Origin: Candidatus Brevibacterium intestinavium
Lineage (GTDB): Bacteria > Actinomycetota > Actinomycetes > Actinomycetales > Brevibacteriaceae
Direction of reading: 5' to 3'
Assembly: GCA_019117545.1 (NCBI GenBank)
Contig: DWZN01000230.1
Coordinates: 1 to 42,119, forward strand
DNA: 42,119 nt
Shown here: piece by piece, positions 4,637-36,977 of the stretch
How the letters are laid out: each line of letters starts with the position of its first letter
Position numbering within the stretch: the first letter of the stretch is position 1
Notes under the pieces: generated by a model
Seen by the model: only the letters and a program-made list of their open reading frames with translations
Told to the model about the DNA's origin: nothing
Databases searched by the model: none
Program-made: the position numbers and the translations under genes

Positions 4637-5274
4637 GCTCCTGCCACCGTGGTCCCGGGTTGCAGATCAGCGCAGATGCTCTCGTAACTCACGGATACCA
4701 GTGTGGACGAGCCGAATGTGAAACTGGTGATAGAAGCCAGATCACATTCCCGGCGCCGGGGGTCGTGGACGAGCGAGCGCCCCTCCCCCGACAGCCGGGT
4801 CATCCAGATCGGCAGCTGGTGCGAGACGATGACGCCCTCGGCCTCGGGCCCGTACCGGGCCAGTTTGGTCCGCAGGCTGGCCATCGCGGCTCGCATGCGC
4901 AGCACGATCTGTCGGTACGGTTCGCCCCAGGACGGGGTCAGCGGGTTGTACAGGCGCAGGAGGTTCCTCGGTTCGGCCAGCCGACGCACACCCAGCTTCT
5001 GCCCCTCGAACGAGTTCGCGGCCTCGATCACCCGGTCATCGGTGAACACCGGAAGCTCGAGCGCCTCGGCCAGCGGTTCGACCGTCTGCTGGGTCCGCAG
5101 CAGCGGTGAGGCGACGAGTTCGACCGGGGCCGTGTCCGCCGTCGAGAAGTGCTTCGCGACCCGGGCGGCCATCTCATGGCCGCGCTCGGTCAGACCGAAA
5201 TGCGGCAGACGTCCGTACAGCACCCCCTCGGGGTTGTCGACCTCGCCGTGCCTGACCAGGTGGATCGTGGTCAT
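4633..5274 (-). CDS. Histidine phosphatase (phosphoglycerate mutase-like) family protein
   Basis: The product has 213 residues. The N-terminal [21 protein letters not shown] matches the RHG signature whose His is phosphorylated. The [17 protein letters not shown] segment supplies the conserved Arg, and [14 protein letters not shown] supplies the second catalytic His. The substrate is unknown; family members range from phosphoglycerate mutases to broad phosphatases. It sits between hemL and the TlpA-like gene with 4-nt ATGA overlaps on both sides, the same position as the Rv0525-type gene in mycobacteria. A link to heme or cytochrome c formation is guilt by association only. Confidence 0.85.
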
Positions 5275-6632
5275 GCCTGCGCCTTTCCCGCCTCCGGCAC
5301 CGCGGCCGCGGCCTTCGCCGCCGCGGGCAGAGCGGTCACGATCCGGTCGAGGATCTCATCGGTGTGGGCGTAGGACAGGAACCAGGCCTCGAAGGCGCTC
5401 GGCGGCATGTGGATGCCCTGATCGAGCATGGCGTTGAAGAACGCCGAGTACCGGTCGACGTTCTGTCCGCGCGCCTGTTCGTAGTTCGTCACCTCCGTGT
5501 CGGTGAAGAAGACCGAGAACATCGAATTCGCGGACTGGATGACGTGGGCGACGCCTTCGGCCTCCAGACTCGCTGCGACGGCCGATCGCAGGATGTCCGC
5601 CGCCCGTCCTATGTGCGAGTACACGTCGAGTTCGGTGGTGAGCTTGAGCGTGGTCAGTCCGGCGGCGGTGGCCACGGGATTGCCCGACAGCGTTCCCGCC
5701 TGGTAGACGGGGCCGGCCGGGGCCAACTGGGCCATGACATCGGCACGTCCGCCGAAGGCCGCGGCGGGGAATCCGCCGCCCATGACCTTGCCGAAGGTGA
5801 ACAGGTCCGGTGCTCCCTCCGGGTAGCCGAGCCGATCGGCCTCATAGCCGTACCAGCCGGCTGCGGAGACGCGGAACCCGGTCATCACCTCGTCGCTGAT
5901 CATCAGCGCACCGTGGGCCTTGGTCAGACGGCGGATGGTGTTCGTGAAGCCCTCGCGCGGGGGCACGACGCCCATGTTCCCGGGGCTGGCCTCGGTGATG
6001 ACGCAGGCGATGTCATCACCGTGCTCGGCGAAGACGGCTTCGAGACCGGCGGCGTCGTTGTAGCCGACGACGATGGTGTCCTGCGCCTGCGCCCCGGTCA
6101 CGCCCGGGGTGTCGGGCAGAGAGAAGGTCGCCAGTCCGGACCCGGCCTGGGCCAGCAGCGAATCCACGTGGCCGTGGTAGCACCCGGCGAACTTCACGAC
6201 CTTCGACCGGCCCGTGTATCCGCGGGCCAGACGGATCGCGGACATGGTCGCCTCGGTGCCCGAGGACACGAGACGGACCTGGTCGACGGGGTCGACCCGG
6301 GACACGATCTCCTCGGCGAGTTCGACCTCACCGGTCGAGGGGGTGCCGAAGGAGAAGCCCTTGACGGCGGCTTCCTGCACGGCGGCGAGCACCTCGGGGC
6401 GCGAGTGGCCCAGGATCATCGGGCCCCAGGAGCCGATGAGGTCGATGTAGTCGTTGCCGTCGGCGTCACGCAGCCAGGCGCCGGTCGCCTCGGTGATGAA
6501 TCGGGGGGTGCCGCCGACGGCCTTGAACGCGCGGACCGGGGAGTTGACTCCGCCGGGGGTGACGGCCTCGGCGCGGGCGAAGAGTGCGGCGGACTGATCG
6601 GTGGGGTGTCCGTGCGTCGGTGCTGTCGTCAT
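5271..6632 (-). CDS. hemL: Glutamate-1-semialdehyde 2,1-aminomutase HemL
   Basis: HemL is a PLP enzyme that converts glutamate-1-semialdehyde to 5-aminolevulinate, completing the C5 route started by glutamyl-tRNA reductase. The 453-residue protein shows the class III aminotransferase features: [30 protein letters not shown]; the CYHGHVD segment; DEVMTGFR with the PLP Asp; and [12 protein letters not shown] with the Schiff-base Lys. The start at 6632 is preceded by AGAGGAGA. The frame extends upstream to 6803 but that would overlap the MarR gene and lacks family similarity. A 55-nt gap separates it from the MarR gene. The downstream phosphatase overlaps its stop by 4 nt. Confidence 0.96.
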
Positions 6633-6687
6633 GGGGTCTCCTCTGATTCTTCGCGGGATCGTGGTCGTGGAACGTGGCAGGGGCGGC

Positions 6688-7155
6688 TCAGGAGCCGTCG
6701 AGTTCGCGCAGATGGTCGTGGACCCTGGCGAAGATGCGACCCAGAGTCGCCATCTCCTCGGGTTCGAGCAGGTCGACGAGGTGGTCGCGGACACCGGCGA
6801 CATGGTCGGGGGCGACGGTGCGCAGCAGCTGCCAACCGGCCTCGGTCATCACACAGTTGACTCCGCGTCCGTCCTCGGCGATGGCCGAGCGTTCGAGCAG
6901 TCCTCTCTTCTCCATCCTCGCCACACTGTGGGTCAGACGCGACCGCGACATGGTCGTGTCGGTGGCCAGCAGCGCCATCCGCATGGTTCGGTCCTCGTGT
7001 TCGGACAGCCGAACGAGGATCTCGTACTCGGGCAGGCCGATGCCGTGCTTCTCGCGCAGCTCCTTGTCCAGCTGCGCGCTCAGCAGCTGGGAACCGCTGA
7101 GGTAGCTGCGCCACGCTCTCTGGTCCACGGCCGACAGCCAGCGGGGCTCAGTCAT
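6688..7155 (-). CDS. MarR-family transcriptional regulator inside the heme operon
   Basis: This 155-residue winged-helix protein starts at the ATG at 7155, which shares one base with the hemB TGA; a GTG one codon upstream is the alternative, and GGGAG sits about 6 nt upstream. The central segment ([49 protein letters not shown]) is the MarR helix-turn-helix, followed by the wing containing [14 protein letters not shown]. The ligand is unknown. Its place between hemB and hemL with translational coupling suggests co-expression with heme enzymes. Whether it regulates them or responds to heme, phenolics or oxidants cannot be seen from sequence. Confidence 0.88.
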
Positions 7156-8177
7156 CACCGGCTCCCGGTCGCTGCGGTGCCCGCCCCCGCGGCCTCGGCC
7201 TGGAGCCTCTGGGCGACCTCGGTGGCCCAGTAGGTGAGGATCGCATCGGTGCCGGCGCGTTTGAAGGCGATGAGGGACTCCTCGATGGCCCGTTCGCGCT
7301 CGATCGCCCCGGCCGCGGCGGCGAATTCGATCATCGCGTACTCGCCGGAGACCTGGTAGGTCCAGACGGGCACAATGGATTCGCGGGCCACCTCGGCGAG
7401 GACGTCGAGGTAGGGCAGCCCGGGTTTGACCATGACGATGTCGGCGCCTTCGGCCAGGTCGAGCCCGAGCTCGCGCAGGGCCTCGCGACCGTTCGCGGGA
7501 TCCTGCTGGTAGGTCTTGCGATCGCCCTTGAGCTCGGAGTCCACGGCCTCCCGGAACGGGCCGTAGAAGGCCGAAGCGTACTTCGCGGTGTAGCCCATCA
7601 CGACGGTGTCGGTCAGCCCGGCGGCGTCGAGGGCCTCACGGCAGTAACCGACCTGACCGTCCATCATCCCCGACAGTCCGAGCACCTGGGCTCCGGCACG
7701 GGCCTGGGCCACAGCCATCGAGGCGTAGCGGTCGAGGGTGGCGTCGTTGTCGACTCCCCCGGCCGAGTCGAGGACTCCGCAGTGGCCGTGGGAGGTGAAT
7801 TCGTCGAGGCACAGATCGGCCATGACGACCGTGTCCTCGCCGAGGCGGTCGCTGAGCAGCGACAGCGCGCGGTTGAGGATGCCGTCGGGGTCATCGGCCT
7901 GGGAGCCCGTCTCGTCCTTGTGCTCGGGGATGCCGAAGAGCATGAGTCCGCCGACTCCGGCCGCCACGGCCTCCTCGGCCGCGGCCAGCAGGGACTCCAG
8001 CGTGTGCTGGACGACTCCCGGCATTCCCTCCAACGGGACCGGTTCGCTCAGGCCCTCCTTGACGAACATCGGCAGGATCAGCTCGGACGGGTGCAGCTGC
8101 ACTTCGGACACGAGCCTCCGCAGGGCCGGCGTCGAGCGCAGGCGGCGGGGGCGTGCGGATCCGGGAACCAGTGGCAT
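7155..8177 (-). CDS. hemB: Delta-aminolevulinic acid dehydratase (porphobilinogen synthase)
   Basis: HemB condenses two 5-aminolevulinates into porphobilinogen. The 340-residue protein shows [10 protein letters not shown] at the N-terminus, the metal-site segment [15 protein letters not shown], the Schiff-base segment [17 protein letters not shown] and [13 protein letters not shown]. The metal segment keeps the first and third Cys of zinc-type enzymes but has Asp at the second position, a mixed composition I recall from other actinobacteria. The start at 8177 comes after the hemD-fusion stop with a 1-nt spacer; an upstream in-frame extension to 8318 lies within that gene and was not used. The stop overlaps the MarR start. 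Confidence 0.96.
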
Positions 8178-8178
8178 G

Positions 8179-9783
8179 TCAGGCCTTCTTTCTGCGGCGC
8201 TTCTGGCTCGGACGCTTCGGGGTGATCCCGGCGTCCACGTCTTCTGCCCGCTTGGTGAGTGCGAATTCGACGAGTCCGTCGATGAGCGAGGTGAGGTTGG
8301 CTTCCTCGGCGAGCACATCGACCCGCAGTCCGTGCTCGGCCGCTGTGTTCGCCGTGGCCGGACCGATGCAGCAGATCACCGAGGTGGCCGCGGGTTTGCC
8401 GGCGATGCCGACGAGGTTGCGCACCGTCGACGAGGAGGTGAAGAGGAAGGCGTCGAAGTCGCCGGCCTTGATCGACTCGCGGATCGGCGCCGGCGGCGGG
8501 GAGGCCCGCACGGTGCGGTAGGCGGTGACGTCGTCGGGGTCCCAGCCCTTCTCGAGCAGACCGGCCACCAGCACCTCGGTGGCGATGTCGGCCCGGGGCA
8601 GGAGCACGGTGTTCATCGGGTCGATGTCGTCGACGAATTCCGGCCAGGCCGCGGCCAGGCCGCGGGCCGAATGCTCACCGTCGGGAACCAGGTCGGGGGT
8701 GATTCCCCAGTCGATGAGGGCCGCCGCCGTGCGACCGCCGACGGCCGCGACCTTGACTCCGGCCATCGACCGGGAGTCGAGCCCGAAGTCCTCGAACCAC
8801 ATGCGCACCGCGCGCACGGCGTTGACCGAGGTGAAGCCCACCCATTCGTAGGATCCGTCGACGAGTCCGCGGATGGCCTTCTCCATCTGGGTCGGGGTCC
8901 GCGGGGGCTGCACGGCGATGGTGGGCACGACGGTGCCGACGGCACCGAGCTCGGCCAGAGCCTCGGCGGTGGAGGTTCCCTGCTCCTTCGTCCGCGGGAT
9001 GAGCACCTGCCAGCCGAAGAGCGGTTTGGATTCGAACCAGCTCAGCTCTCCTCTGGATTCCACGCCCTGTCCCATGATCACCACCATACGATCCGATCCT
9101 GTCTGCGTCATCGAAAGAGCCTGCTTCAGGGTGGTCTCCACGCTCGTCTGCTCGATCGTGGAGATCCCCCAGCCCAGCAGCACCTTCGTGTCCTCGTCCC
9201 AGCCGTCGGCCAGCAGGGCACCGATGGCCTGTTCGTGGGCGGCGGCGGTGCCGGTGAGCACATGGGTGGTGTTGCGGTGTCGGGAGACGTCGACGTGGGT
9301 CTGCGGTCCCGCCTCGATGAAGCGCACGGACCGGACCCGGTTCGTCGTCAGGGCTGTGCCGGTGTAGGCCGCCGTCGAGGCCGACAGGCCGACTCCCGGC
9401 ACGATCTCGACCTCGACGTCGGCCTTGCGGCACACGGCGGCCTCGGCCGTGGTGTTCGTGAAGATCAGCCCGTCATCGGAGCTCAGACGCACGACGGTGT
9501 TGTCGGGTCGGGCGAGTTCGGCCAGCCGCCGGCCCCGGGTGGATGCGGCGACACCGAGATCGGCGGCGTCGATGAGCGTCGCCGCCTGGGGAACGTAGGC
9601 GGTGACGATCTCCGAGTGGACATCGGCGTCGTAGACGACGGTGACCGCTGTGGCCAGGATCTCCGCTCCGCGCATCGTCATCAGGCTCGATTCGCCGGGA
9701 CCGCTGCCGATGAAGACGACGCGCGGCGCGGCCGGCAGCAGTCGGCGCGGTTGGACCTGACCGGTGGCCGGTGTGCTGTTCAT
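8179..9783 (-). CDS. hemD: SUMT-like domain fused to uroporphyrinogen-III synthase HemD
   Basis: The 534-residue protein has two parts. Residues of about 20-245 resemble uroporphyrinogen-III C-methyltransferase: [23 protein letters not shown] at the start and [16 protein letters not shown] in the middle. The SAM-binding GGDP motif of active enzymes is replaced by [11 protein letters not shown], so methyltransferase activity is doubtful. Residues of about 258-510 are uroporphyrinogen-III synthase ([48 protein letters not shown]), which closes hydroxymethylbilane to uroporphyrinogen III. The C-terminal 25 residues are a basic tail. The ATG at 9783 overlaps the hemA-hemC stop as ATGA. Related two-part proteins occur in other actinobacteria. 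Confidence 0.9.
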
Positions 9784-12257
9784 CCCTGCTCCTGAGCCTT
9801 GACGGGGGTGAGGTGATCGGCGCTGGCCGACGGGTCGATGCCGAGTGCGTCCAGCAGGTCCTCGGCCGCCGCGGTGCCGAGTTCGTCGGCGATGCGGGCC
9901 AGTTCCTTGCCGGTCACGGTCAGCTGCTGTTCGCTCCCGTTCGTCCAGTCGACATCCGGCACGGCCGGCAGCTGGGTGCTCCGGCGGGTCCGGGCCAGTC
10001 TGCCGTCGTCATCGGCCATCACGGCGTCGACGACGAACTGGCCGCCCTCGATCTTGGCCAGGGCGCCGATCGGGGCCGAGCACCCGGCCTCGGCACGGGA
10101 CAGGATCGCGCGTTCGCAGGTCACGGCCAGATCCGTGGTCTGGTCGTGGATGCGGCGCAGGGCCGCGCGCACCTCGGCGTCGGCGTTGAGGATGTCCTCG
10201 GAGCGGGCATAGGAGCTGTCCGCACTGCGGGTCTCCACCGCCAGCGCACCCTGGCCGGGAGCCGGGAGCATGACGTCGAAGCTCAGCGAGTCCGTGGCCT
10301 CGGCCAGCCGACCGATCCGGCGGACTCCGGCCGCGGCGAGGACGACGGCGTCGAGGCGACCGTCACGGACGTGGGCGATGCGGGTGTCGACGTTTCCGCG
10401 CACTCCCCTGACCTCGATATCGGGGCGGGCGGCCTGCAGCTGCACGGCGCGCCTGGGCGAACCGGTGCCGATGGCCGATCCGGCCGGCAGCTCGGACAGG
10501 CTCAGGCCGTCGCGGCCGATGAGCACGTCGGAGGGGTCGACGCGCGGTGGGATCGCCGCCATCTGGATGCCCACCTCGGGGGTGGTCGGCAGGTCCTTGA
10601 GCGAATGGACGGCGAGGTCGATCTTGCCCTGGTGCAGCGCCTGTCGCACCGCGGAGACGAAGACGCCGGTGCCGCCGAATCCGGCCAGCGGGGACATGTT
10701 GACGTCCCCCTCGGTGACGACCTCGACGATCTCGACCCGCCAACCGGTCAGAGCCGCGATCTGGTGGGCGATCGCCGTGGACTGGGACCGGGCGAGCTTG
10801 GACCGGCGGGTGCCCAGGCGCACGGTGCGTCCGCTGAACTGCTCGGGTTCGACGATGTCGAGGGTGTGGTCGGCGACCGGTCGGATCCCATCGGCTTCGA
10901 CGTGGTCGGCGCTGGCGGCCTTCGCGACCTTCGTCTCGGGCTGAGTGATCGCATGGGCGACCTTGTTGACGGGAAGGTCGAACAGCTGCATGAGCGCTTG
11001 GGCGTAGTCGACCTCGGATTCCGTCACAGCCAGTTCCTTGACCTTCACCGTCGGGGTGTGGATGAGCTTCTCGGCCACCCGGTGCAGCGATTTGCGGACC
11101 TCGCCGAAGGACTTCTCATCGACGACCGCACCGATCTTCTTCTCCAGGCGCGCGGTCTCGGAGGCGAGGACGTCCTTGGCGTGGGAGCGCAGCGCGGTCA
11201 CCGTCGGGGCGACGGAGCGCTCCCTGTTGCCGGTGGCGATCTTGTCGAGTTCCTCAGCGATGATCCCCCGCACCTCCTCGACGGTGCTCACGACCTTCGC
11301 GTCGCGCTCCTTGTCGGAGTTCTTCAGCAGTTCGCGGATCTCGCCGAGTCCGAAGAGCGCAACGTGTTCGAACTCGCGCACGCTGGGGTCGATGTCATGC
11401 GGCAGGGCGAGGTCGACGAACGCCTTGTTCGCCGCGCCCTTGGGGTTCTGCGACAGTCCGGCGACGATGTCGTCACGGGTCACGACGACACCGCGGGCAC
11501 CGGTGCAGGAGATGATGAGGTCGGCGTCGGCGATCTCCTCGGCCATCACCCGCGGGGTCAGCTCACGGGCCCGTCCGCCCACCTCGGCGACGAGGCGCTC
11601 GGCCTTCTCCACGGTCCGGTTGAGCACGGTGATGCGGCTGACCCCTTCCCTGTGCAGGCCGGACACGACGAGTCCCGACATGGCTCCGGCACCGATGACC
11701 AGGGCGTTGGCGGCTCGCAGCGAACCGATGTGCGCGGCCGAGGCTTCGAGCGCGGCTCCGAAGAGGGAGCGGGCGACCTCGCCGAGGTCGGTCTCCGAAT
11801 GGGCGCGCTTGCCCACTCGCAGCGCCTGCTGGAGGGCCTGGGACAGTTCGGAGGTCAGGGCCCGGTCCTCCTGCGAACCGGTGAACGACGAGCGCAGCTG
11901 GCCGAGGATCTGAGCCTCACCGATGGCCATCGAGTCGAGTCCGCAGGCGACCTTGAGCAGATGCTCCATGGCCTGAGTGTCGTAGTGGGCGTAGAAGTGC
12001 GCGGCGATGTCCGACCATTCCTTGTCGATCGAGGACACCAGCGCATTGCCGAGGTCGGCCAGTCCTCCGTGGAAGGCCGAGACGTCGGCGATCAGCTCGA
12101 GGCGGTTGCACGTCGAGAGCACGGCGAGCCCTTCGACGTTGTCTCCGGCAAGTGCGTCCTTGCGCAGAGACCCGACCTCGCCGGCACCGAAGGCCAGCCT
12201 GTCGAGCATGTCGATCGGGGCCGACTGATGTGAAATGCCGAGAACCAAGAGAGTCAA
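9780..12257 (-). CDS. hemA-hemC: Fused glutamyl-tRNA reductase / hydroxymethylbilane synthase (HemA-HemC)
   Basis: A single 825-codon frame encodes two normally separate heme enzymes. Residues 1 to about 430 are glutamyl-tRNA reductase: LGISHQSAP, the VLSTCNRLE motif with catalytic Cys50 at its canonical position, GEAQILGQ, the NADPH-site ALVIGAGAMSGL and the C-terminal dimerisation helices. After a linker of about 40 residues, residues of about 475-805 are hydroxymethylbilane synthase: VRLGTRRSKLARSQ, HSLKDLPTTP with catalytic Asp555, GTGSPRRAVQL, VRGNVDTR, LPAPGQGALAVE and the cofactor-binding Cys726 in AEAGCSAPIGA. All key residues of both enzymes are present. There is no Met near the junction (the next one is residue 521). 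The hemD start overlaps the stop by 4 nt, and the gene's own start overlaps rex by 4 nt. Confidence 0.93.
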   Translation of the reverse strand: MTLLVLGISHQSAPIDMLDRLAFGAGEVGSLRKDALAGDNVEGLAVLSTCNRLELIADVSAFHGGLADLGNALVSSIDKEWSDIAAHFYAHYDTQAMEHLLKVACGLDSMAIGEAQILGQLRSSFTGSQEDRALTSELSQALQQALRVGKRAHSETDLGEVARSLFGAALEASAAHIGSLRAANALVIGAGAMSGLVVSGLHREGVSRITVLNRTVEKAERLVAEVGGRARELTPRVMAEEIADADLIISCTGARGVVVTRDDIVAGLSQNPKGAANKAFVDLALPHDIDPSVREFEHVALFGLGEIRELLKNSDKERDAKVVSTVEEVRGIIAEELDKIATGNRERSVAPTVTALRSHAKDVLASETARLEKKIGAVVDEKSFGEVRKSLHRVAEKLIHTPTVKVKELAVTESEVDYAQALMQLFDLPVNKVAHAITQPETKVAKAASADHVEADGIRPVADHTLDIVEPEQFSGRTVRLGTRRSKLARSQSTAIAHQIAALTGWRVEIVEVVTEGDVNMSPLAGFGGTGVFVSAVRQALHQGKIDLAVHSLKDLPTTPEVGIQMAAIPPRVDPSDVLIGRDGLSLSELPAGSAIGTGSPRRAVQLQAARPDIEVRGVRGNVDTRIAHVRDGRLDAVVLAAAGVRRIGRLAEATDSLSFDVMLPAPGQGALAVETRSADSSYARSEDILNADAEVRAALRRIHDQTTDLAVTCERAILSRAEAGCSAPIGALAKIEGGQFVVDAVMADDDGRLARTRRSTQLPAVPDVDWTNGSEQQLTVTGKELARIADELGTAAAEDLLDALGIDPSASADHLTPVKAQEQG

Positions 12258-12949
12258 TTCCTGTGCTCCTCAAAACCAGGGTTGAGCGGTGCCGTGTCCA
12301 GCGCCGAATAGTATGCGAGTACTTGCAGCTCACTGGCCAGATCGACTTGGTGGACACGGACGGTGTCCGGGGTGTCGAGCACGGTAGGTGAGAAATTGAG
12401 AATGCCGCGCACACCCGCCTCGACGGCCGTGTGGGCCGCCGCGGGTGCCGCGGCTGCGGGAACGGCCATGACCACCAGGTCGATGTGCTCGTTCCAGGCG
12501 GGCAGGTCGTCGAGAGCGGAGACGGTCAGCGTGCCGATCGTCGTCCCGATCTTCTGCTCGTCGATGTCGAAGATGGCGGTCAGACGCAGGCCCCGACGAC
12601 GGAAGCCGGCGTAGTCGGCCAGGGCCGAACCGAGGCGACCGGCGCCGATGATGGCCACGCTCCGGTCGCGGTCGAGGCCGAGGAAGCCCCGCAGGGTGGT
12701 GACGAGTTCGGGGCACGAGTATCCGACGCCGCGTTTGCCGGAGCGTCCCAGCTGGGACAGGTCCTTGCGCAGAATCGACGGGGACACTCCGCTGGCGGCG
12801 GCGAGGTCCTCCGACGACACGGTCTCCCTGCCGGTTGCGACGATGGTCTCGACGGCCTGCAGATAGATCGGGAGTCGGGAGATCACGCGTTCGGGTACGT
12901 TTCTGCGAACGACACCCTCAATCCTGTTGGCGGACAGAATCTCGCCCAC
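12254..12949 (-). CDS. rex: Redox-sensing transcriptional repressor Rex
   Basis: Rex senses the NADH/NAD+ ratio and represses respiratory and fermentation genes when NADH is low. This 231-residue protein has an N-terminal winged helix (ISRLPIYLQAVETIVATGRETVSSEDLAAASGVSPSILRKDLSQLG). It is followed by a Rossmann NAD(H) domain beginning SVAIIGAGRLGSALADYAGFRRRG. The length is typical. It overlaps the fused hemA-hemC gene by 4 nt, as rex does with hemA in streptomycetes, so Rex and tetrapyrrole synthesis are co-expressed. I found no clear TGTGAA-N6-TTCACA operator upstream. Confidence 0.95.
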   Translation of the reverse strand: MGEILSANRIEGVVRRNVPERVISRLPIYLQAVETIVATGRETVSSEDLAAASGVSPSILRKDLSQLGRSGKRGVGYSCPELVTTLRGFLGLDRDRSVAIIGAGRLGSALADYAGFRRRGLRLTAIFDIDEQKIGTTIGTLTVSALDDLPAWNEHIDLVVMAVPAAAAPAAAHTAVEAGVRGILNFSPTVLDTPDTVRVHQVDLASELQVLAYYSALDTAPLNPGFEEHRN

Positions 12950-14804: not shown

Positions 14805-16223
14805 ATGGTGCTTATGTCCAAGAAATCCGCACCTCGCTACGACCGGCTGCTCACGCCCGGACGGTGGGTACGGGACTTCGTCGACGACCTCGCCGTCGCC
14901 TCGCCGGCGCGGCTGGCGATCGGATCCTTCGTCGCCGTCGTCGCGCTGTTCGCAATCCTTCTCATGCTGCCGGCGAGCATGCGCCATCCGGGATCGGTCG
15001 ATGAGGTCACGCATATCGCGAATTCCGTCTTCGTGGCCGTCTCGGCCGTCTGCGTGACCGGGCTCAGCCCGGTGGTCACAGAGGAGTACTGGTCGGATTT
15101 CGGGATCTCGGTCATCACCGCCGGCATCCAGGTCGGCGGTCTCGGCATCCTCACGCTCGCCTCGGTGCTGGGCATGGCGGTCTCACGCCGGCTGGGCGTG
15201 CGTCAGCGGCTCATCGCCCAGCAGGCCACCTCGGCGCTCAATCTGGGTCAGGTCGGCTCCCTGCTCAAGACGGTCGTCATCACCATCGTCACCGCCGAGG
15301 CGATCCTCGCGGTGCTCCTGTTCCCGCGCTTCCTCATCCGCGGCGATTCCATCGGCGATGCCACGTGGTACTCCGTGTTCTATTCGATCTCGGCGTTCAA
15401 CAACGCCGGCTTCACCATCCACCCGGGAGGCGGCGCCCACTTCGCCTCGGACCCGTGGATCCTGTCCCTGCTCATGATCGGCGTGTTCGTCGGGTCCCTG
15501 GGCTTCCCGGTCGTGCTCATGGTCGCGATGTTCTGGAATCGGCCGAAGAAGTGGGATCTGCACACGAAGCTGACGCTGACCACCACCACGGCGGTGCTGG
15601 CCGTCGGTCTGCTGCTGCTGGCGCTCTTCGAATCGGCGAATCCGGCCACGCTCGGGGACAAGAACGCCGGTCACACCTTCGTCGAAGTCCTGTTCATGGC
15701 CGTCATGCCCCGGTCGGGCGGGTTCTCGACGATGGAGATCGCGGACATGAGCCAGGCCTCCCACCTGCTCATGGACCTCATGATGTTCATCGGCGGCGGA
15801 TCGTCCTCGACCGCCGGCGGCATCAAGGTCACGACCGTGGCCGTGCTCGTTCTGGCCGCCTTCGCCGAGGCCAGGGGCCTGCAGGATGTGCACGTGTTCG
15901 GGCGCCGGCTGACCTCCTCGACGATCAAGCTGTCCATCTCGATCCTGCTGACAGGCGCCTCCATCGTCTTCGTCGGCACGCTGGCGATGCTCCAGATCAG
16001 TGCCGAACCGCTCGACCGAGTGCTGTTCGAGGTGATCTCGGCCTTCGGCACCGTCGGCTTGAGCTCCGGGGTGTCCGCCTCCTCGCCGAATTCGGGGCTC
16101 TATGTGCTCTCGGTCATCATGCTCATCGGCCGACTCGGTACGATTACACTTGCGGCGGCCCTGTCCATGCAGGACTCCGCGCGACTGTACCGCTACCCCG
16201 AGGAAAGGCCGGTCGTTGGCTAA
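14805..16223 (+). CDS. ktrB: Potassium uptake channel subunit KtrB/TrkH family
   Basis: The protein has about 472 residues and is the membrane pore of a two-component K+ uptake system. Four P-loop repeats can be read: AVSAVCVTGLSPV; SISAFNNAGFTIHPGG; AVMPRSGGFSTMEI together with FIGGGSSSTAGGIKVTT; and VISAFGTVGLSSGVS. Each carries the selectivity Gly, and many hydrophobic helices surround them. The start is uncertain: ATG at 14805 follows a GGGA element, and an ATG three codons later (14814, MSKKSAPRY) is equally plausible. The stop overlaps the ktrA TTG start by 8 nt, so the two subunits are translationally coupled. Confidence 0.92.
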   Translation: MVLMSKKSAPRYDRLLTPGRWVRDFVDDLAVASPARLAIGSFVAVVALFAILLMLPASMRHPGSVDEVTHIANSVFVAVSAVCVTGLSPVVTEEYWSDFGISVITAGIQVGGLGILTLASVLGMAVSRRLGVRQRLIAQQATSALNLGQVGSLLKTVVITIVTAEAILAVLLFPRFLIRGDSIGDATWYSVFYSISAFNNAGFTIHPGGGAHFASDPWILSLLMIGVFVGSLGFPVVLMVAMFWNRPKKWDLHTKLTLTTTTAVLAVGLLLLALFESANPATLGDKNAGHTFVEVLFMAVMPRSGGFSTMEIADMSQASHLLMDLMMFIGGGSSSTAGGIKVTTVAVLVLAAFAEARGLQDVHVFGRRLTSSTIKLSISILLTGASIVFVGTLAMLQISAEPLDRVLFEVISAFGTVGLSSGVSASSPNSGLYVLSVIMLIGRLGTITLAAALSMQDSARLYRYPEERPVVG

Positions 16224-16878
16224 CGAACACACCTCCATCCTGGTCATCGGGCTGGGACGCTTCGGGTCCTCGACGGCCGCCACCCTGACCCGGCTGGGGC
16301 GGGAGGTCATGGCCATCGAGCACAATCCCGAGCTCGTCAAGGACTGGAGCGGCAAACTCACCCACGTCGTCGAAGCCGATTCCACGAACATCGACGCGCT
16401 GCGACAGGTCGGTGCCGGTGATTTCTCGACCGCCGTCGTCGGCATCGGCACGTCGATCGAGGACAGCGTGCTCACCACGGCCAATCTCGTCGACCTCGGT
16501 GTGGGCCAGGTGTGGGCGAAGGCGATCTCGCCCTCGCACGGCAAGATCCTCCACCGCATCGGCGCCCACCACGTCCTCTACCCCGAATCGGATGCGGGTC
16601 GGCGCGTGGCCCACCTGGTCAGTTCCAGGATGATGGAGTACATCGAGTTCGATGAGGGTCACTTCGCCGTGGTGAAGATGCGTCCGCCGCGGGAGATCCA
16701 GGGCTTCACGCTCAGCGAATCGGGTGTGCGCGACAAGTACGGCGTGACCATCGTGGGCATCAAGAGCCCGGGGCGCGACTTCACCTATGCCGATCCTTCG
16801 ACTCGGGTGGGCAAACAGGACCTGCTCATCGTCGCCGGGCACGTGGAGCTGCTGGGTCGCTTCGCCGGCCGCCCCTAG
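16216..16878 (+). CDS. ktrA: Potassium uptake regulatory subunit KtrA/TrkA family
   Basis: This 220-residue cytoplasmic RCK protein gates the KtrB channel. The N-terminal Rossmann nucleotide site reads ILVIGLGRFGSSTAATL, followed by an acidic EHNPELV turn and the DSTNIDALRQVGAGDF segment typical of RCK_N. The C-terminal part from about residue 140 matches RCK_C (IQGFTLSESGVRDKYGVTIVGIK). The start is TTG at 16216, with AGGAAAGG 8-15 nt upstream inside the end of ktrB. Family members bind ATP/ADP or c-di-AMP; which applies here cannot be read. Confidence 0.92.
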   Translation: MANEHTSILVIGLGRFGSSTAATLTRLGREVMAIEHNPELVKDWSGKLTHVVEADSTNIDALRQVGAGDFSTAVVGIGTSIEDSVLTTANLVDLGVGQVWAKAISPSHGKILHRIGAHHVLYPESDAGRRVAHLVSSRMMEYIEFDEGHFAVVKMRPPREIQGFTLSESGVRDKYGVTIVGIKSPGRDFTYADPSTRVGKQDLLIVAGHVELLGRFAGRP

Positions 16879-36866: not shown

Positions 36867-36873
36867 GGTGGCT

Positions 36874-36965
36874 ACGACAGGGGAGCGCCGTCAGGGGCGC
36901 TGAGAGTGCAGGTGAAGCTGCAGACCCTCGAACCTGATGCGGTCAGTACCGCCGAAGGAAGTCGA
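36874..36965 (+). ncRNA. TPP (thiamine pyrophosphate) riboswitch
   Basis: The conserved THI-element segments appear in order: GGGGAGC near 36880, GCTGAGAGT (36899-36907), ACCCTCGAACCTGATG (36923-36938) and GGTCAGTACCGCCGAAGGAA (36941-36960). A closing CGAC/GTCG pairing brings 36875-36878 and 36961-36964 together. It lies directly before the ykoEDC thiamine-precursor transporter operon, so TPP should turn the operon off. Confidence 0.95.
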
Positions 36966-36977
36966 GACTCTTCTACC

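What the first reader, a model, noticed from the sequence alone, without database searches (positions are those of the whole stretch)
9780..12257. HemA and HemC fused in one 825-residue protein
Seen: one uninterrupted frame carries a complete glutamyl-tRNA reductase (Cys50 in STCNR) and a complete hydroxymethylbilane synthase (Asp555, cofactor Cys726). A linker of about 40 residues joins them, with no Met at the junction. Known: these are separate adjacent genes in most bacteria. Inference: the fusion would tie the tightly regulated first committed enzyme 1:1 to a later step, two reactions apart, and could tether the proteins in a tetrapyrrole complex with the HemD fusion. I do not recall this fusion being well described.
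Basis: partly seen in the sequence, partly recalled or inferred. Interest (0 to 1): 0.7.

Follow-up and report, generated by a model that had tools for sequence, protein, structure and literature searches.

The report
Fused heme enzymes HemA and HemC
In the bacterial genus Brevibacterium the first enzyme of heme building is joined in one protein to a later enzyme of the same pathway, apparently because two touching genes merged in the genus's ancestor; similar joins are found in other bacteria, and whether the join changes how heme is made is untested.

Summary
Confirmed. Minus strand 12257..9780 encodes one 825-residue protein with a complete glutamyl-tRNA reductase (HemA) and hydroxymethylbilane synthase (HemC); no other copy of either, and no ALA synthase, was found in this genome. 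It is not a sequencing artefact: of 57 Brevibacterium genomes 54 have one uninterrupted frame, two more are open across the junction but interrupted inside HemC, one has contig ends at the junction. Three sister genera keep two genes; there, and in 19 of 19 sampled members of the order, hemC appears to start inside the end of hemA, so the pair was probably already translationally coupled. The junction is a variable tether (26-145 residues) plus a conserved 24-residue stretch, mostly the old HemC N-terminus. No internal start codon is conserved; 7 of 54 genomes have none in the junction. On a quick tree the genus fusions form one clade with an unfused sister; other HemA-HemC fusions lie elsewhere, so the join probably arose repeatedly. 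Databases already label it; my paper searches turned up no description. Most likely it makes permanent an already coupled 1:1 output; the two enzymes share no intermediate, and any regulatory gain is untested.

The parts
9780..12257 (-). hemAC: HemA-HemC fusion, 825 aa, TTG start, TGA stop
10974..12257 (-). HemA (glutamyl-tRNA reductase) part, residues 1-428; Cys50, His99
   Evidence: Pfam/NCBIfam; PDB relatives 4n7r, 1gpj; residue conservation
10896..10973 (-). variable A/S/T/P-rich tether, residues 429-454 (26 aa here, 26-145 aa in the genus)
10824..10895 (-). conserved stretch residues 455-478 (ADGxxPVADHTLDVVEPExxxGRT); from V461 on it matches the N-terminus of separate HemC in the nearest unfused relative
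9783..10823 (-). HemC (hydroxymethylbilane synthase) part, residues 479-825; Asp555, Cys726
12254..12949 (-). rex, redox-sensing repressor; its stop overlaps the hemAC start (TTGA)
8179..9783 (-). cobA-like/hemD fusion (uroporphyrinogen-III methyltransferase-like + synthase); start overlaps hemAC stop (ATGA)
7155..8177 (-). hemB, porphobilinogen synthase (start at 8177 preferred to the mechanical 8318)
5271..6803 (-). hemL, glutamate-1-semialdehyde aminomutase

Best explanation
hemAC is a real bifunctional gene made once in the ancestor of Brevibacterium by merging hemA and hemC, which in relatives overlap by a few bases. Shown by sequence: one open frame across the genus, both active sites intact, no conserved internal start, a length-variable tether where the HemA tail was, and the residue V461 standing where HemC starts in the nearest unfused relative. 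Inferred: a net frame change near the old overlap put the two frames together; one ~88 kDa chain is made, dimerises through the GluTR part and carries two HemC units on flexible tethers, each enzyme working independently. It fixes at 1:1, after translation, an output ratio that overlapping translation already set. No substrate channelling is expected because HemL and HemB act in between.
For: 54 of 57 genus genomes intact, 56 of 57 open across the junction, the 57th with contig ends there. Sister genera G057, G058, G059 separate with ATGA/GTGA overlaps; of 22 unfused order members read (these 3 and 19 others) 20 have a 4-base and 2 an 8-base overlap, with the start codon chosen at the overlap (4 of the 22 also had a later candidate). 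The nearest relative's HemC starts V/M-SDHT(F/L)DIVEP, matching V461-ADHTLDVVEP. pN/pS in the 37-genome clade: tether 0.33, HemA 0.21, conserved stretch 0.15, HemC core 0.10. Start-type codons in the junction are not conserved: position 461 in 14 of 54, 479 in 24 of 54, and 7 of 54 genomes have none between 429 and 479. Active-site residues invariant in 54 of 54. HemA tree: genus fusions one clade, sister unfused P0106 (SH-aLRT 98).
Against: No protein evidence: a single chain was not observed. 47 of 54 genomes do have a start-type codon somewhere in the junction, and 5 of these 124 candidates match AGGAGG at 5 of 6 bases, as well as most real hemA starts do. One database record (P0209, named Brevibacterium luteolum, 6 member sequences) is a stand-alone 365-aa HemC 97% identical to the end of the fused L040/L043 proteins, so some strain or assembly is annotated as split. 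A proteolytic cut in the tether cannot be excluded. The tree is a quick LG+G4 tree with long-branch warnings. The order survey read only 19 of the 183 non-genus genomes.
Confidence: 0.78

Rival explanations
1. The fusion has a regulatory gain: GluTR is the feedback-controlled, proteolysed entry enzyme (recalled from enteric bacteria), so in the fusion HemC shares its fate; entry flux and porphobilinogen use rise and fall together, limiting free porphobilinogen.
For: Present throughout the genus while the tether sequence is free to change; the HemA tree needs at least 12 changes between fused and unfused, 7 on starred branches alone, which repeated benefit would explain.
Against: No shared intermediate; overlapping genes already couple the two; adjacency alone makes repeated merging easy, as 17 of 20 loci read in the MAG's phylum keep hemA and hemC in one frame a single stop apart (these loci were picked by same-frame matches). 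No regulation data.
Confidence: 0.2
2. The polypeptide is cut in the tether, or HemC is also made from an internal start, and two ordinary enzymes result.
For: The tether is A/S/T/P-rich and low in W/F/Y/I/L/M/C/V (15% against 32% in HemA), so likely exposed; GTG at 479 in this window with a 4 of 6 Shine-Dalgarno match; the stand-alone HemC record P0209.
Against: No start-type codon is conserved in the junction and 7 of 54 genomes have none; tether length and sequence vary too much for a conserved cut site in residues 429-454.
Confidence: 0.15
3. Neutral ratchet: gene merging by a frame change in an overlapping pair, kept because two overlapping frames are hard to recreate, with no functional effect.
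For: Overlap in 22 of 22 unfused order members read; both active sites unchanged; tether evolves fast.
Against: No loss of the fusion in the 56 genus genomes where the junction can be read, though P0209 may be one.
Confidence: 0.4
4. Assembly or sequencing error that removed a stop.
For: Several distant hits in the protein search do look like read-through of a frameshifted hemA (P0103-P0105, P0110, P0112).
Against: 54 genus genomes with an open junction, 12 of them single-contig; fewer amino-acid than silent changes in the tether.
Confidence: 0.01

Closest known systems
Brevibacterium records 'glutamyl-tRNA reductase /hydroxymethylbilane synthase' (P0014) and 'Multifunctional fusion protein' (P0022, P0025, P0030, P0042, P0043)
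   Same: The same fused protein in other species
   Different: Annotation only; no experiment or paper found
Pathway-neighbour heme fusions: CobA-HemD, precorrin-2 oxidase/ferrochelatase/methyltransferase (CysG type, name recalled), HemC-HemD (PMC4921024, passages seen)
   Same: Tetrapyrrole enzymes merged into one chain
   Different: Those join consecutive enzymes around an unstable intermediate; HemA and HemC have two enzymes between them and were not in the passages seen
Archaeal HemA-HemB (one Sulfolobus assembly) and HemC-CobA-HemD fusions (PMC11237513, section 12 read)
   Same: Early-pathway HemABLCD fusions, HemA with a later enzyme
   Different: Different partners; HemA-HemC not mentioned in that section
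HemA-HemC fusions in a Rhodothermaceae MAG (L112) and in records named Candidatus Bipolaricaulia (P0134), Bacteroidia (P0142), Vicingaceae (P0145) and Mycobacteriales (P0101)
   Same: Same domain order
   Different: Separate from the Brevibacterium clade on the HemA tree; some of the distant records, such as P0091, P0098, P0100 and P0101, have a Met in the junction and may be two genes merged by an error

Membership tests
Glutamyl-tRNA reductase (HemA) | three domains and score over curated cut-off | tested here: met
   TIGR01035 336.7 bits, cut-off 209.55; three Pfam domains; another equivalog model, NF000744, missed its own cut-off (413.5 of 429)
Glutamyl-tRNA reductase (HemA) | catalytic Cys in STCNR and conserved His (roles recalled) | tested here: met
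   Cys50, His99 in 54 of 54
Glutamyl-tRNA reductase (HemA) | reductase activity | not testable with these tools
   no assay
Hydroxymethylbilane synthase (HemC) | score over curated cut-off, both Pfam domains | tested here: met
   TIGR00212 283.1 bits, cut-off 164; PF01379, and PF03900 over positions 3-46 of 74
Hydroxymethylbilane synthase (HemC) | catalytic Asp, cofactor Cys and binding Args (roles recalled) | tested here: met
   Asp555, Cys726, R484, R602, R603, R620, R626 in 54 of 54; aligns to 1ah5
Hydroxymethylbilane synthase (HemC) | synthase activity with dipyrromethane cofactor | not testable with these tools
   no assay
Bifunctional gene fusion | one uninterrupted frame, conserved across independent genomes | tested here: met
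   54 of 57 intact, junction open in 56 of 57
Bifunctional gene fusion | single polypeptide in the cell | not testable with these tools
   needs proteomics
Channelling fusion of consecutive enzymes | product of one domain is substrate of the other | tested here: not met
   by established pathway knowledge HemL (GSA to ALA) and HemB (ALA to porphobilinogen) act in between; separate hemL and hemB lie in the same cluster

The most novel reading that the evidence does not exclude
HemA-HemC is a recurrent, selected fusion of two enzymes that share no metabolite: it makes the stability and feedback control of the pathway's entry enzyme govern porphobilinogen use directly, a control link between the first and fourth steps, with the conserved 24-residue stretch before HemC acting as a docking or positioning element.
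Probability: 0.2. Interest if true: 0.65.

Novelty: new variant of a known kind. Interest (0 to 1): 0.42.

Why it matters
The heme-pathway fusions listed in PMC4921024 (passages seen) join consecutive enzymes around an unstable intermediate. HemA-HemC joins steps with two enzymes between them, so it must be explained otherwise: by gene adjacency alone, by fixed dosage, or by shared control. Brevibacterium offers a clean test, because a nearest unfused relative, the likely ancestral overlapping arrangement and separate fusions elsewhere can all be compared.

Tried and rejected
Artefact, internal start and channelling were considered and set aside as above.

The column 'open_frame_aa' of the genome search misled me at first: G266 looked fused but has a TAG between the genes. 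I therefore counted fusions only from reading frames extracted. In one search, 29 of 29 non-own loci of the window's phylum, 17 of 20 loci of the Rhodothermaceae MAG's order and 20 of 20 loci of that MAG's phylum were separate. These are the loci returned as best matches, not random samples, out of 296, 99 and 395 genomes searched; the match tables were truncated, so fusions may have been missed.

Dropped rows: from the HemA tree I left out P0103, P0104, P0105, P0110, P0112, P0120, P0163, P0165, P0173, P0188 (signs of frameshift read-through or of a truncated part) and P0107 (my cut pattern failed). I kept P0091, P0098 and P0101 although they have a Met in the junction. P0094, P0100, P0122, P0127, P0150, P0158, P0176, P0187 and P0194 were fetched but not used; other fused hits were not fetched. 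From the 57 genus genomes, G048 (one-base frameshift inside HemC), G036 (assembly gap and a frame break inside HemC) and G037 (contig ends at the junction) were left out of the 54-sequence counts. For the order survey I chose 19 of the 183 non-genus genomes by hand from the strongest matches. The first genome-contig scan with P0117 found nothing.

Paper searches gave no title or abstract describing HemA-HemC; nearly all listed papers were seen as listings only. Seen inside: section 12 of PMC11237513, passages of PMC4921024 and of PMC3004389. PMC5312243 is not held.
Full report
What is there. The minus strand of the window, 12257 down to 9780, encodes one 825-residue protein. The TTG start follows GAGGAG. 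Residues 1-428 are a complete glutamyl-tRNA reductase and 479-825 a complete hydroxymethylbilane synthase by Pfam, NCBIfam and alignment to solved structures. It is the only match to either half in the 98% complete genome, and no ALA synthase was found there, so it is probably the cell's only source of both steps. It sits in rex - hemAC - cobA-like/hemD - hemB - hemL, with rex/hemAC and hemAC/hemD each overlapping by four bases.

Is it real. All 57 genomes of the genus matched (named relatives are Brevibacterium). Reading frames that I extracted are intact in 54; G048 and G036 are open across the junction but interrupted inside HemC by a one-base frameshift and by an assembly gap; G037 has contig ends at the junction. 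Twelve of the 54 are single-contig genomes. Active-site residues are invariant in 54 of 54.

Anatomy of the junction. Residues 429-454 form a tether that varies from 26 to 145 residues, rich in A, S, T and P. Residues 455-478 are nearly as conserved as the HemC core (mean pairwise identity 0.83 against 0.87; HemA 0.70; tether 0.44). In the 37-genome clade pN/pS is 0.33 in the tether, 0.15 in the conserved stretch, 0.21 in HemA and 0.10 in the HemC core; in the other, more diverged 17 genomes the tether ratio is near 1 with silent changes close to saturation. The junction has no stop in its own frame in 54 genomes; the other frames have stops in 21 and 20. Start-type codons are not conserved: GTG at 461 in 14 of 54, GTG or ATG at 479 in 24 of 54. 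Seven of 54 genomes have none in the junction; among 124 candidates in the other 47, 5 match AGGAGG at 5 of 6 and 31 at 4 of 6, against 47 and 7 of the 54 hemA starts. Internal starts are therefore possible in single genomes but not a shared feature.

Where it came from. The three other genera held of the family keep hemA and hemC separate, overlapping by ATGA or GTGA with hemC in another frame. Of 19 further order members read (of 183 non-genus genomes searched), 17 have the same four-base overlap and 2 an eight-base overlap, taking the start codon at the overlap; 4 also had a later candidate. In the nearest unfused relative (G058; also P0212) HemC begins V/M-SDHT(F/L)DIVEP, the counterpart of V461-ADHTLDVVEP, so the conserved stretch from V461 on is the old HemC N-terminus. 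I did not see it in the other 21 HemC N-termini printed. A net frame change just upstream of the overlap would make the fusion (inference). On a quick tree of 90 HemA parts the genus fusions form one clade with unfused P0106 as sister.

How common. Other HemA-HemC fusions exist: a Rhodothermaceae MAG and 3 of 20 loci read in its order, that MAG included; database proteins named Bipolaricaulia, Bacteroidia, Vicingaceae and Mycobacteriales; and one HemA-HemC-HemD protein (P0166). The tree needs at least 12 changes between fused and unfused, 7 on starred branches alone; gains cannot be told from losses, sampling favoured fused proteins, and some distant fused records may be errors. None of 29 loci of the window's phylum outside this genome, and none of 20 loci of the MAG's phylum, was fused when read strictly. 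Some apparent fusions are frameshift read-throughs (P0103-P0105, P0110, P0112).

How it works. Most likely one chain with two independent enzymes: the GluTR part dimerises and each chain carries a HemC on a flexible tether (inference from the families; no model). Because HemL and HemB act between them, no metabolite can pass directly. The 1:1 ratio was probably set before fusion by overlapping translation; the fusion makes it permanent and makes both parts share one lifetime. A regulatory benefit is possible but untested.

Evidence against. P0209, a stand-alone HemC named B. luteolum, is 97% identical to the end of two fused proteins: one strain or annotation is split. No protein-level evidence exists here.

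Novelty. Database records already carry both names. The papers looked into describe CobA-HemD, a three-role siroheme fusion and HemC-HemD and archaeal HemA-HemB and HemC-CobA-HemD, not HemA-HemC in the parts seen; no title or abstract in the listings described it (open-licence papers only).

Noticed in passing
P0166: A 979-residue database protein carries HemA, HemC and HemD domains in one chain; single sequence, origin unknown.
   Followed up: no
window 8179-9783 minus: The methylase half of the cobA-like/hemD fusion scores below the cut-off of every methyltransferase model listed (best 95.1 of 198 and 91.7 of 185 bits), so it may be divergent or not a working SUMT.
   Followed up: no
L044, L045, L046, L048, L049: rex was not found at the hem locus in these five genus loci; it was found in 55 of 61 loci, the sixth without it being the contig piece L056.
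   Followed up: partly
window 36869-36977 plus: TPP riboswitch (61.8 bits) ahead of or overlapping the start of a 740-aa ORF that begins mechanically at 36937.
   Followed up: no
P0209; L040 and L043: A B. luteolum record has HemC alone starting at MRPVADHTL; the near-identical fused genes carry CTG at that first codon.
   Followed up: partly
L133-L152: In 17 of 20 loci read in the Rhodothermaceae MAG's phylum, hemA and hemC lie in one frame separated by a single stop, so one stop loss could fuse them; these loci were picked by same-frame matches.
   Followed up: partly
window 15183-16559 minus: 458-aa ORF with no Pfam or NCBIfam match.
   Followed up: no
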